Assembly: GCA_001804705.1 (NCBI GenBank)
Contig: MHAY01000064.1
Span: 35,921 to 99,920 of the forward strand
Reading direction: 5' to 3'
DNA: 64,000 nucleotides
Source: Ignavibacteria bacterium RIFOXYC2_FULL_35_21
GTDB taxonomy: Bacteria; Bacteroidota; Ignavibacteria; Kapaibacteriales; UBA2268
The position numbers and the translations under genes are program-made. The notes under the pieces are model-generated. The model ran no database searches. It was not told where the DNA came from and worked only from the letters and a program-made list of their open reading frames with translations. This document shows positions 55,724 to 59,530 of this stretch, in pieces. Numbering within the stretch: position 1 is the first letter of the stretch; each line of letters begins with the position of its first letter.

Positions 55724-58700
55724 ATGAAAAAAGAGTTAACACCGGAACAACAGGAAGCATTGAGGTTTGACAGGCATATTGCATTAACAGCAAATGCAGG
55801 CTCAGGTAAGACGAGTGTTTTACAGCAAAGGTATGTAAATATTCTGATGGACGATGAAAATGCTCCCGAACCGAGAAATGTTGTCGCCATAACATTTACG
55901 AGAGAAGCCGCGGCTGAAATATTAGCAAAGGTTTCAAAAAACGTTGAAGAAAGAATCGAAAAAGAACCACATCTTAAACAAAAAATGAAACTTGCCGGGA
56001 TAAGAGACAAACTGAACAATGCTCCAATATCAACTATACATTCTTTTTGCTCTTTACTACTGAGGAAGTTTCCAATCGAGACGAATTTACCTCCGAATTT
56101 TGGTGAGCTGACTAATATTGAAAAAAAGGAGATTTATTCTAATTCAATCGTTCAGGCAATGGAGGAATGGCTTGAAGAAGGTAATATGGAGAAGAGAGAC
56201 TCTATCAGAAAATTAATCTTTACACTCGGAAGAAAAAATGTTGAAGAAGGAATTAAATATTTACTTGACAAAAGAGAAAGATTTGATTGGCTGAAAAGAT
56301 TTTATGAGCAAAATAATGATGTTGATTTTATTCAGGCCAGGGATAATATAATTATAAAAATATTAGCCGAAAATTGTATCATTATATTTGAAAAGATTGT
56401 AGAATTATTTGATATACTTTATCGCAAAGAATCAAATAAATTTATTAATCTGTTACAAATCAGAAATGAATTAAAGGATATTATATTAAATCTTAGAAAA
56501 GTACAAACAATTCACGAATCTTCGCCGGAGCGGGATAATACTGAAAAAATAATCAACAAAATAAATAATGCGATTGATTCCATTCGTACTGAGAAAATAA
56601 TTACCAAAGAGTTTAACTTAGATAAAAATACGACAAAAAAATTTGTAGAGAATGATGAAATGCTCTATTTCAATACATTCACAAATGAACTTCATGATAT
56701 TGTTAACATCTGCGATTCATATAATTACAGCGAGTCGGACAAAGAACTTTTCAATTTTGCAAGACTGTTTGTGGCAATTACTTCCGATGTTATCGAAATA
56801 ATAAATGATGAAAAAGAAGTTTTATCAGGTATTGACTTCGATGACCAGTTAATCAAGACTTCCGAACTATTAAATAACGAAGAAGTTGTCAGAAAAATCA
56901 GAAGAAAAATTAAATATTTAATGATTGACGAGTTTCAGGATACTAATGAACTTCAATATGACATCGTTAAAAAACTGATACCGGAACTCACAGGAAAGAA
57001 AGCAAACGGAAAACTAAATTTCTATGTAGTCGGAGATGAAAAGCAGAGTATATATGGTTTCAGAAATGCGGACGTAAGAGTATTTGAAAAAGCAAAAAAA
57101 GATATTGCTGAAACGAATAGAAGAGAACATGAAGATTTAGTAATCCCCCTTAATCCCCCTTTAGTAAAGGGGGAAAAAAATAATTATGGTAATCTGAATC
57201 TTACAGTTACATTCAGGCTGGCACCTGTACCTGCAGCATTTGTTAATAAGGTGTGTGGCAAATTATTTGAAAAAGTTGAATCGGAATATGATGTCATCTA
57301 TTCTCCACTTGTTTCCTGGAAAGAGATATCAGATATTATCGAAAAAGAAAATATTAATGATGAAATTGAATTGACAGATAAAAATTTTGGTAATCTTACT
57401 TTTTTAATCACTGATTATAAGAATGCCGATAAAGAGAATGAAGTTATAAGTGAAGCTAAAAGCTTAGCATTATATATAAAGAATCTTGTGAATGAACGAG
57501 GAAAGGAATGGAGTGATTTTGGAATTCTCGGAAGGTCGAGAAAAGGATTTGACGAATTAATTACAGCTTTGCAGGAACAAAACATACCCTATATTTTACA
57601 CTCGGGAAAAGGATTCTATAAATCACAGGAGGTCGTTGATATATGTTCTGTACTAAGCTTTTTGCACAATCATAATGACAACAAAGCATTGGCAGCTTCA
57701 TTGAGGTCGCCTTATTTCAAAATATCAGATGCAATACTGTTCATGGTGAGTGAATTAAAAAACGGAAATTCACTATGGAGTAAATTCAAAAGGTATTGTT
57801 TGTTAACAGAGGAGAAATCTCAAAACAACGAAAGCATCAGTAAGGATGAACAAAATTGTCTGAGAGCATTGAAAATTCTATCTGAGCTTACCTATCGCGC
57901 GGTAAGAATTTCCATACCTCAGTTAATACATAAAATAATTGATTTATGCAGTTGGAATTCAGCCATATCAGGCTTGCCTGCAGAAAACCAGATGAGGGCA
58001 AATATTAATAAATTGATACAGATCGCCAGGGATTTCGAAAAAAGAGGTTTTAAAAATTTATTCGATTTTGTCGAACAAGTCAAAGGAACAATTTCAGCAG
58101 ATTTAACCGAAAGCGAAGCTGTGTTTTTGTCTGATGAAAATGCTGTGAATATAATGACAATTCACGCATCAAAAGGTTTGGAGTTCGATACGGTTTGTTT
58201 GTATGGTTCCCATGTATCAAACTCAACGACAAATCAATTTCAAATTTCCGATGATTTAGGTTTAACATTCAAAATGAAGGCTAAGGATGAGACTTCGGAC
58301 ATTAATAAGGATATAATTACGCCTGCTTATTTATTAGCAATTTATAATCAAAATAATGCTGAATGGGCAGAATCTAAAAGGCTTTTATATGTTGCAATGA
58401 CAAGGGGTGAAACTAATATTATCATAAGCGGCTCGATAAACAAAAAAGGGCAAAAGGGATTTAATAAAAGCTTTCTCAATATGATTTTAAACACAATTGA
58501 TGAAGGTTTTACTTTAAGCAGGGATTTACAGGAAATGAGCATTAATGATACGTTGAAATGTTATCATAACAATCAATTTTATAATCTCAAAATTAAATAC
58601 ACTGTAAAATTCTTATTTAATTACTCAGAAATAACTGACATTGAAATAAAAGATAAAATAAATCAAAAGCCTGAACCGAGGATACTTCTCGAAGAAGTAA

Positions 58701-59530
58701 AATCAAATGTTGATAATGAAGTTTTCTCGGCTACAAAGCTGATGACATATCAAAATAATTCCGAAGAATATGCAAGAAGATATTTGTTTGGTTTACCTTC
58801 TGACGATGATATAAATTTAGAATCAGTAAAATTGATTGATAATGCCCAAGAAGATGATATAGTAGGAAGTCTTGCCGGAACACTAATTCATTCAGTACTC
58901 GAAAGAATCAAGGATTGGTTGAAAAGCGATGCTGATGTTGACGAGAATTTATTAAAAGACATAATTGATAATGTTATCGGAAATTCAAATAAGAAAATCA
59001 CAAATAAATTAAGAGAAAGAATTTTCAATGAATGTAGATGTGTAGCGAATACATCGCTAATAAAATTTTATGCAACGTACATTAAGGAATCAATTCCTGA
59101 GCAGACTCTGCAAATGGTTTACAAAAACGATATGCTTCTTATTAAAACTGATTTGTTAATTAAAAATGCGGGCGGTGAATGGGAAGTTTGGGACTGGAAA
59201 ACAAATAGAGCGGGTACCAAAGAAACAAAGGACGCTTTAATAAAAAACTATGAATTGCAGATGAAAATCTATATTTACTTCCTTATGAAATTGTATCCTG
59301 AGCAAAAGAATTTCAAAGCGAGATTGTTGTTTACAAGATTAGCAACGGATTCAAAAATCCCCCTTAATCCCCCTTTGAAAAAGGGGGAAAATATTAAACT
59401 GTCATCTTCTGAAAAGGGGGAAACAAATGAAAATTGGTTTTATACCTACAATTGGACAATTTATGATTTAGATAAAATTGAAAGTGAAATAAATAAAATT
59501 GTCGATGAAATAAGAGTTGAACAAATTTAA
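55724..59530 (+). CDS. UvrD/AddA-like superfamily 1 helicase-nuclease (C-terminal PD-(D/E)XK-like domain)
   Basis: LTANAGSGKTSVLQQRY (Walker A), YLMIDEFQDTNELQY, VVGDEKQSIYGFRNADVRVF, IMTIHASKGLEFDTV, LLYVAMTRGETN; C-terminal WEVWDWKTNRA nuclease motif; two in-frame repeat-derived segments. Confidence 0.9.
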   Translation: MKKELTPEQQEALRFDRHIALTANAGSGKTSVLQQRYVNILMDDENAPEPRNVVAITFTREAAAEILAKVSKNVEERIEKEPHLKQKMKLAGIRDKLNNAPISTIHSFCSLLLRKFPIETNLPPNFGELTNIEKKEIYSNSIVQAMEEWLEEGNMEKRDSIRKLIFTLGRKNVEEGIKYLLDKRERFDWLKRFYEQNNDVDFIQARDNIIIKILAENCIIIFEKIVELFDILYRKESNKFINLLQIRNELKDIILNLRKVQTIHESSPERDNTEKIINKINNAIDSIRTEKIITKEFNLDKNTTKKFVENDEMLYFNTFTNELHDIVNICDSYNYSESDKELFNFARLFVAITSDVIEIINDEKEVLSGIDFDDQLIKTSELLNNEEVVRKIRRKIKYLMIDEFQDTNELQYDIVKKLIPELTGKKANGKLNFYVVGDEKQSIYGFRNADVRVFEKAKKDIAETNRREHEDLVIPLNPPLVKGEKNNYGNLNLTVTFRLAPVPAAFVNKVCGKLFEKVESEYDVIYSPLVSWKEISDIIEKENINDEIELTDKNFGNLTFLITDYKNADKENEVISEAKSLALYIKNLVNERGKEWSDFGILGRSRKGFDELITALQEQNIPYILHSGKGFYKSQEVVDICSVLSFLHNHNDNKALAASLRSPYFKISDAILFMVSELKNGNSLWSKFKRYCLLTEEKSQNNESISKDEQNCLRALKILSELTYRAVRISIPQLIHKIIDLCSWNSAISGLPAENQMRANINKLIQIARDFEKRGFKNLFDFVEQVKGTISADLTESEAVFLSDENAVNIMTIHASKGLEFDTVCLYGSHVSNSTTNQFQISDDLGLTFKMKAKDETSDINKDIITPAYLLAIYNQNNAEWAESKRLLYVAMTRGETNIIISGSINKKGQKGFNKSFLNMILNTIDEGFTLSRDLQEMSINDTLKCYHNNQFYNLKIKYTVKFLFNYSEITDIEIKDKINQKPEPRILLEEVKSNVDNEVFSATKLMTYQNNSEEYARRYLFGLPSDDDINLESVKLIDNAQEDDIVGSLAGTLIHSVLERIKDWLKSDADVDENLLKDIIDNVIGNSNKKITNKLRERIFNECRCVANTSLIKFYATYIKESIPEQTLQMVYKNDMLLIKTDLLIKNAGGEWEVWDWKTNRAGTKETKDALIKNYELQMKIYIYFLMKLYPEQKNFKARLLFTRLATDSKIPLNPPLKKGENIKLSSSEKGETNENWFYTYNWTIYDLDKIESEINKIVDEIRVEQI
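57143..57173 (+). repeat. CCCCCTTAATCCCCC-type repeat inside the UvrD/AddA-like CDS (encodes IPLNPPLVKG)
   Basis: atccccc ttaatccccc tttagtaaaggggg, in frame with the ORF starting at 55724. Confidence 0.92.
59357..59387 (+). repeat. CCCCCTTAATCCCCC-type repeat inside the UvrD/AddA-like CDS (encodes IPLNPPLKKG)
   Basis: atcccccttaatccccctttgaaaaaggggg, same phase as the copy at 57143. Confidence 0.92.

What the first reader, a model, noticed from the sequence alone, without database searches (positions are those of the whole stretch)
57143..59387. Two copies of one dispersed repeat captured in frame inside a single helicase-nuclease gene
The UvrD/AddA-like ORF contains two copies of the CCCCCTTAATCCCCCTTTGAAAAAGGGGG repeat, which also occurs intergenically at 10447 and 27946. 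They are about 2.2 kb apart, in the same orientation and the same codon phase, and encode IPLNPPLVKGE and IPLNPPLKKGE. Both seem to lie in variable linkers: one just before the NLTVTFR helicase motif, the other in the nuclease domain. A partial third segment (tctgaaaagggggaa, SEKGE) follows the second copy. This resembles in-frame palindromic element insertion as described for Rickettsia RPEs. It suggests a repeat that spreads into coding DNA and is tolerated as a short peptide linker.
Basis: partly seen in the sequence, partly recalled or inferred. Interest (0 to 1): 0.88.

Follow-up and report, generated by a model that had tools for sequence, protein, structure and literature searches.

The report
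Palindromic DNA repeat inside essential genes
A roughly 35-letter hairpin-forming DNA repeat that is scattered through this bacterium's genome has landed, without breaking the reading frame, twice in a DNA-repair gene and also in several other conserved genes, where it adds short floppy peptides that have been tolerated since before two related species split; the same repeat turns up in distantly related bacterial phyla.

Summary
Confirmed. A 1268-aa AddA/UvrD-type helicase-nuclease gene (55724-59530 +) holds two copies of a palindromic repeat (57145-57173, 59359-59387) in the same orientation and phase, plus a partial third. The genome has 77 intact hairpins of this family. Both peptides are true insertions: two same-genus genomes lack them, while a 73%-identical sister carries both sites, the first expanded to three tandem units. 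The same genome carries in-frame copies in AroE-AroK (three), ValS, an FAD-linked oxidase, a molybdenum hydroxylase and a subtilase; ValS and the FAD enzyme share sites with the sister. Models place the nuclease and AroE-AroK inserts in low-confidence loops. The shared phase is mostly survivorship: with TTAAT only one forward frame is open. The repeat works like REP/RPE elements but fits neither family: no GTAG/CGTC tag, about a third of RPE length, no adjacent Y1 transposase. An exact 34-nt pattern occurs in at least ten phyla. What mobilises it is unknown; at least 13 copies ride inside a MITE. In-frame REP/RPE insertion, even in repair helicases and twice per gene, is already published, so this is a new variant of a known kind. 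Translation was not tested.

The parts
55724..59530 (+). Host gene: AddA/UvrD-type helicase-nuclease, 1268 aa
   Evidence: Open ORF; Pfam UvrD-helicase, UvrD_C, PDDEXK_1; best PDB sequence match Bacillus AddA 3u44; nuclease-domain model matches AddAB structures 4ceh and 3u44
57142..57176 (+). Repeat copy 1 with its AAT/AAA edges (core 57145-57173), encodes IPLNPPLVKGE, between motif QSIYGFR and motif LTVTFR
   Evidence: Pattern match; absent in L053, L054 and P0003, present and tandemly tripled in sister L055
59356..59390 (+). Repeat copy 2 with its edges (core 59359-59387), encodes IPLNPPLKKGE, in a beta-hairpin turn of the PD-(D/E)XK nuclease domain
   Evidence: Exact match; absent in L053 and L054, present in sister L055 as IPLNPLLKKGE; low-pLDDT loop between confident strands
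59407..59423 (+). Partial third unit (TTCTGAAAAGGGGGAAA, SEKGE), probably a decayed 33-nt tandem duplicate of the 3' half of copy 2
   Evidence: Direct reading; relatives, including the sister, lack this extra stretch
10447..10475 (-). Non-coding copy, TGAAT form
   Evidence: longest open frame through it is 62 codons and it lies in no called ORF
27947..27976 (+). Non-coding copy with a 4-nt loop
   Evidence: longest open frame through it is 65 codons; shares its left flank with a copy on contig C29

Best explanation
The repeat is a non-autonomous, REP-like palindromic element about 33-36 nt long: a head, AAATCCCCCT(T/G)AAT, followed by a perfect hairpin, CCCCCTTT-NNN-AAAGGGGG. It spreads mainly in intergenic DNA. 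Copies landing in genes survive only when the net insertion is a multiple of three, the frame they land in is stop-free and the site is a tolerant surface loop; they are then translated as short flexible peptides and inherited. The two AddA copies are such survivors. Shown: dispersal in many copies, insertion relative to relatives, shared sites in a sister species, other host genes, depletion from coding DNA, low-confidence modelled loops at the second AddA site and the three AroE-AroK sites. Inferred: actual translation, and that the inserts are neutral or mildly harmful. How it moves is not shown. Most likely, at about 0.45, a hairpin-recognising single-strand (Y1/IS200-RAYT-type) transposase acts in trans. 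A second route is visible in the sequence: at least 13 copies in this genome are passengers inside a MITE of about 186 bp.
For: 77 hairpins against 0 reversed controls; empty sites in G002 and G003 and shared sites in G001; inserts in AroE-AroK, ValS, an FAD oxidase, a Mo-hydroxylase and a subtilase, with AroE-AroK and ValS relatives lacking them or carrying decayed forms; same ValS and FAD-oxidase sites in the sister; 14 of 69 copies in called ORFs where about 56 are expected; no gene found broken by a copy; insert loops of low pLDDT in otherwise confident models; convergent flanks outnumber divergent ones 15:4, as reported for REPs (PMC3733652); REPIN-like inverted doublets in the 303-copy genome G019; MITE carriers.
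Against: No Y1_Tnp gene lies beside a copy: 24 Y1_Tnp loci, 73 kb, 0 hairpins. G025 has 92 copies and no Y1_Tnp match, G016 10 copies and none. No exact empty site was found, so insertion length, boundaries and any target-site duplication are unknown. The search for coding copies required an open frame, so it could not have found a translated copy with recoded or bypassed stops. Translation has not been observed.
Confidence: 0.85

Rival explanations
1. Recruited function: the peptides are selected linkers or interaction motifs that the proteins need, and the DNA repeat is maintained for the peptide.
For: Sites are kept in the sister species. Between the two species the AddA element DNA is more similar (65 of 70 positions over both sites) than the gene average of 80% (binomial p about 0.003).
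Against: Different frames give different peptides, even inside one protein (PPESPFEKGG and IPLNPPLIKGE in AroE-AroK). Relatives of the same enzymes do without them. Sequences decay in P0122 and P0241. Copies were found by an intact hairpin, which biases the conservation estimate.
Confidence: 0.07
2. The element is skipped in expression (RNA excision or translational bypassing over a hairpin), so the protein lacks the peptide.
For: Stable hairpin of about -14 kcal/mol; perfect stems are kept in several coding copies.
Against: All coding copies are stop-free and in frame, which skipping would not require, although the search itself demanded an open frame. No gene interrupted by an out-of-frame copy was found.
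Confidence: 0.04
3. The element is primarily a transcription terminator or RNA-stability hairpin, and the wide distribution is convergence rather than mobility; coding copies are accidents of that function.
For: Convergent over divergent bias 15:4; an Acinetobacter plasmid copy sits next to a gene's 3' end; microvirus copies are intergenic.
Against: The 34-nt pattern with 31 fixed bases, including the head outside the hairpin, recurs across phyla, far more than a terminator needs. Copy number jumps from 0 to 303 among relatives. It occurs in the middle of essential genes.
Confidence: 0.1
4. Chance similarity, an ancestral proline-rich linker, or an assembly artefact.
For: Only that the assembly is a draft in 105 contigs.
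Against: Zero matches in shuffles and in the reversed control; empty sites in relatives; the same sites in a separately assembled sister, L055/L278.
Confidence: 0.02

Closest known systems
Rickettsia palindromic elements (RPE), as reviewed in PMC2229807
   Same: Palindromic repeat found between genes and fused in frame inside conserved protein genes, tolerated by the enzymes.
   Different: RPEs are described as 105-146 bp and Rickettsia-specific; this unit is about 35 nt and occurs in many phyla. No sequence relation was shown.
GTAG- and CGTC-tagged REPs and REPINs (PMC3733652, PMC3116915, PMC6006769)
   Same: 20-40 nt hairpin with a conserved 5' sequence, extragenic bias to convergent and unidirectional sites, inverted dimers in one relative, intragenic copies including recBCD and UvrD-type genes, two inserts in one ORF.
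   Different: No GTAG/GTGG/CGTC tag at the hairpin foot and no neighbouring RAYT gene; near-identical unit in many phyla, whereas REPs are described as species-specific in sequence.
Bacterial MITEs (PMC2229807, PMC10969869, PMC5896051)
   Same: Non-autonomous small repeats that can fuse in frame with genes; some copies here travel inside a MITE with terminal inverted repeats and 5-bp duplications.
   Different: The 35-nt unit itself has no terminal inverted repeats separate from the hairpin and no demonstrated target-site duplication.
PARCELs (PMC2996958)
   Same: Palindromic coding DNA with a punctate distribution across distant taxa.
   Different: PARCELs are tandem 25-residue amphipathic repeats in ORFs lacking assigned function; here short units lie in housekeeping enzymes and between genes.

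Membership tests
Rickettsia palindromic element (RPE) | In-frame insertion in conserved protein genes as well as intergenic copies | tested here: met
   AddA, AroE-AroK, ValS and others against empty-site relatives; about 55 copies outside called ORFs
Rickettsia palindromic element (RPE) | Length 105-146 bp | tested here: not met
   Conserved unit is about 33-36 nt; length of RPEs from PMC2229807
Rickettsia palindromic element (RPE) | Restricted to Rickettsia | tested here: not met
   Window genome and relatives are Bacteroidota/Ignavibacteria-like by protein matches; unit present in at least ten phyla
REP (GTAG/CGTC superfamilies) | Short hairpin of 20-40 nt in many extragenic copies | tested here: met
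   77 copies, 9-bp stem
REP (GTAG/CGTC superfamilies) | GTAG, GTGG or CGTC tetranucleotide at the foot of the hairpin | tested here: not met
   Aligned copies show CCCCCT(T/G)AAT or CCCCCGAA at that place and no such tag
REP (GTAG/CGTC superfamilies) | Cognate RAYT (Y1_Tnp) gene flanked by the repeat | tested here: not met
   0 hairpins in 73 kb around 24 Y1_Tnp loci of five genomes; G025 with 92 copies has no Y1_Tnp match
REPIN | Two units in inverted orientation forming one larger hairpin | tested here: inconclusive
   Clear in G019; in the window genome closely spaced pairs are mostly direct tandems
MITE | Terminal inverted repeats and target-site duplication | tested here: inconclusive
   Met by the 186-bp carrier found in this genome; not demonstrable for the 35-nt unit, because no exact empty site was found
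PARCEL | Tandem 25-residue amphipathic repeats | tested here: not met
   11-residue single units, or 12-residue tandem units in the sister; definition from PMC2996958

The most novel reading that the evidence does not exclude
A single family of very small (about 35 nt) mobile hairpins circulates between bacterial phyla by horizontal transfer, with its own still unknown, non-RAYT mobilising enzyme, and repeatedly seeds new in-frame peptides in essential genes.
Probability: 0.3. Interest if true: 0.8.

Novelty: new variant of a known kind. Interest (0 to 1): 0.55.

Why it matters
It gives a concrete example of non-coding repeat DNA becoming protein sequence: at least eight insertions in six conserved genes of one genome, with empty-site relatives and a sister species that shares several sites. 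That makes it testable how conserved enzymes absorb random inserts. The near-identical unit in many phyla, with no transposase beside it, poses a clear question about what moves it. Annotators also gain a reason to treat IPLNPPLxKGE, PPESPFxKGG and SPFxKGGLRGI as repeat-derived rather than family-specific motifs.

Tried and rejected
RAYT/Y1 linkage: 24 Y1_Tnp loci examined, none near the repeat; presence across 127 genomes does not track copy number (G025 has 92 copies and no Y1_Tnp; many genomes have Y1_Tnp and zero copies). With the copy densities involved only one or two hairpins would be expected near these loci by chance, so this argues against linked REPtrons, not against action in trans. 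Autonomous transposon between neighbouring copies: ORFs between the nearest pairs looked like ordinary genes by reading. Published description of this sequence or peptide: no hit for four peptide strings and no relevant hit for four DNA strings in the held library. Chance: rejected by shuffles and reversed controls. Interrupted genes: two candidate sites, both natural gene ends by reading. MITE copies without the unit (163-166 bp) were compared with filled ones hoping for an exact empty site, but their centres are too different.

Full report
OBSERVATION. The two coding copies (57145-57173 and 59359-59387) lie in one 1268-aa ORF with UvrD-helicase, UvrD_C and PDDEXK_1 domains; its best PDB sequence match is AddA, 3u44. 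They are 2214 nt apart and in the same phase. A partial third unit follows at 59407-59423.

THE REPEAT IN THE GENOME. The window lies in a 4.15-Mb draft genome of 105 contigs. The hairpin CCCCCTTTN{1,5}AAAGGGGG occurs 77 times and its reversed control never. Reading copies in context (69 copies after collapsing identical contexts) gives a unit of about 33-36 nt: (A)AA(T/C)CCCCCT(T/G)AAT followed by CCCCCTTT-NNN-AAAGGGGG. The predicted fold is a 9-bp stem with a 3-nt loop, about -14 kcal/mol.

INSERTIONS, NOT ANCESTRAL LINKERS. Site 1 is absent in P0003 and in the same-genus genomes G002 (L053) and G003 (L054); site 2 is absent in L053 and L054. P0003 has SKIPVINTSKKDE at site 2, possibly a decayed copy (inference). 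The sister genome G001 (AddA 73% identical) has both: site 1 as three tandem 36-nt units (IPLNPPLEKGENKDN-NPPLEKGENKDN-NPPLEKGENKDN) and site 2 as IPLNPLLKKGE. More distant homologs lack the motif at both sites.

OTHER GENES. Testing each copy for open frames and naming hosts by Pfam gives in-frame copies in an AroE-AroK fusion (three, in two different frames), ValS, a glycolate-oxidase-type FAD protein, a molybdenum hydroxylase, a subtilase near its N-terminus, and the N-terminal region of a DUF5723 protein (the last may lie before the true start). AroE-AroK relatives P0124, P0125 and P0127 lack all three inserts, while P0122 and P0123 keep diverged forms; ValS relatives P0242-P0251 lack the ValS insert and P0241 has a decayed one. 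In the sister genome ValS has a copy at the same site with the same loop, and the FAD protein has three tandem units at the same site. Several insertions therefore predate the split of the two species (inference from shared sites), and tandem number changed afterwards.

WHY THE PHASE MATCH IS WEAK EVIDENCE. With TTAAT only one forward frame and two reverse frames are typically open; with TGAAT five of six usually are. Two surviving forward TTAAT copies must therefore share a phase. Elsewhere the peptides differ: PPESPFEKGG and IPRTPFDKGG in this genome, SPFTKGGLRGI in G001, SPFxKGGLRGI in other phyla. The peptide itself is not what is conserved.

SELECTION. Only 14 of 69 context-distinct copies fall inside called ORFs although the called coding fraction is 0.81 (binomial p about 2e-27), and several of the 14 are probably N-terminal over-calls. 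Among intergenic copies convergent flanks outnumber divergent ones 15:4 (p=0.019). A search for genes broken by a copy gave two candidates, both natural gene ends on inspection. The inserts are modelled as low-confidence loops: in the nuclease domain the blocks covering the insert fall to pLDDT 50-62 between strands at 93-98, and in AroE-AroK the dips at about 91-110, 181-200 and 371-390 coincide with the three inserts.

DISTRIBUTION. In the same order 17 of 127 genomes have the hairpin, from 1 to 303 copies; in a phylum sample 26 of 399. They include Nitrospirota, Deltaproteobacteria/Desulfobacterota, Chloroflexota, Planctomycetota, Nitrospinota, Omnitrophota, Schekmanbacteria, Ratteibacteria, Deferribacterota (Seleniivibrio), Deinococcota (Trueperaceae), Gammaproteobacteria (Acinetobacter, Coxiellaceae) and Bacteroidota/Ignavibacteriae. 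Phylum names follow record titles and ordinary taxonomy. Contamination of single MAG bins cannot be excluded, but named strains such as Acinetobacter towneri DSM 14962 are among them.

HOW IT MIGHT MOVE. The unit resembles a REP: hairpin plus conserved 5' head, extragenic bias, and REPIN-like inverted doublets in the 303-copy genome. It lacks the GTAG/CGTC tag that defines the described REP superfamilies (PMC3733652), and no Y1_Tnp gene is next to it. A genome with 92 copies has no Y1_Tnp match. A second route is visible: a MITE of about 186 bp with CCCAAATTATTCATTAGAA-type termini and 5-bp flanking duplications in most copies read carries the unit in at least 13 copies; shorter MITE copies of 163-166 bp lack it. 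The coding copies have no MITE sequence around them. I therefore commit to a REP-like element mobilised in trans, at about 0.45 for a Y1-type enzyme, and leave the enzyme open.

KNOWN OR NEW. In-frame palindromes in bacterial genes are described for RPEs (PMC2229807) and for REPs, including insertions in recBCD and UvrD-type genes, tRNA synthetases, and twice in one ORF (PMC3733652). The phenomenon is known. The element family differs in tag, length, breadth of distribution and lack of transposase linkage, and I found no paper holding its sequence or peptide in the library searched, which does not include most subscription journals. I rate it a new variant of a known kind.

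Noticed in passing
G000 contigs C6, C7, C10 (two), C11, C13 (two), C18, C29, C37, C56, C96, C97; also C58 with an N gap; e.g. L373, L376, L389, L399: A MITE family of about 186 bp with terminal inverted repeats CCCAAATTATTCATTAGAA / TTCTATTGAATAATCTGGG and 5-bp flanking duplications (TTAAT, TTAAA and similar) carries the palindromic unit at its centre; 163-166 bp versions (C17, C32, C59, C83) lack it. 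No autonomous partner was looked for beyond the terminal-repeat search.
   Followed up: partly
L124 (ValS) and L132 (AroE-AroK linker): A second dispersed repeat family also encodes peptides in the same proteins: SSFDKLRMT in ValS, present only in this genome among the relatives aligned, and ILRSTQNDK/ILNQVRNDK in the AroE-AroK linker.
   Followed up: partly
Window 55549-55571 +: One diverged copy (2 mismatches) of the CTTCGACTNCGCTCAGNATGACA repeat lies just upstream of the AddA gene.
   Followed up: no
L343 (bajarodmic virus 606) 2395-2424; L344 (Dulem virus 97) 2301-2331: Intergenic spacers of Microviridae genomes hold a 90-94% match including the head CCCCCTTAATCCCCCTT. Whether this is a terminator, a replication signal or the mobile unit is unknown.
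   Followed up: partly
L112, L346, L349, L350 (genome G019): Inverted doublets GAGAAACCCCCTAACCCCCTTTGAAAAAGGGGG-spacer-reverse complement: REPIN-like architecture in a relative with 303 hairpins.
   Followed up: partly
Window 57142-57176 and 59356-59390 against L055: Element DNA is more similar between the two sister species (65 of 70 positions) than the AddA gene overall (80%). Ascertainment by intact hairpin, gene conversion between copies, or templated repair of the palindrome could explain it.
   Followed up: partly
Window 27907-27976 and L015 (C29:17047): The non-coding copy at 27947 shares at least 30 nt of left flank with the copy on contig C29, so a longer composite seems to have been duplicated.
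   Followed up: no
L345 (Acinetobacter plasmid NZ_CP090068.1, 20740-20774): Acinetobacter plasmids carry 91-94% matches to the unit; this one sits within 10 nt of the 3' end of a CoA-transferase gene.
   Followed up: no
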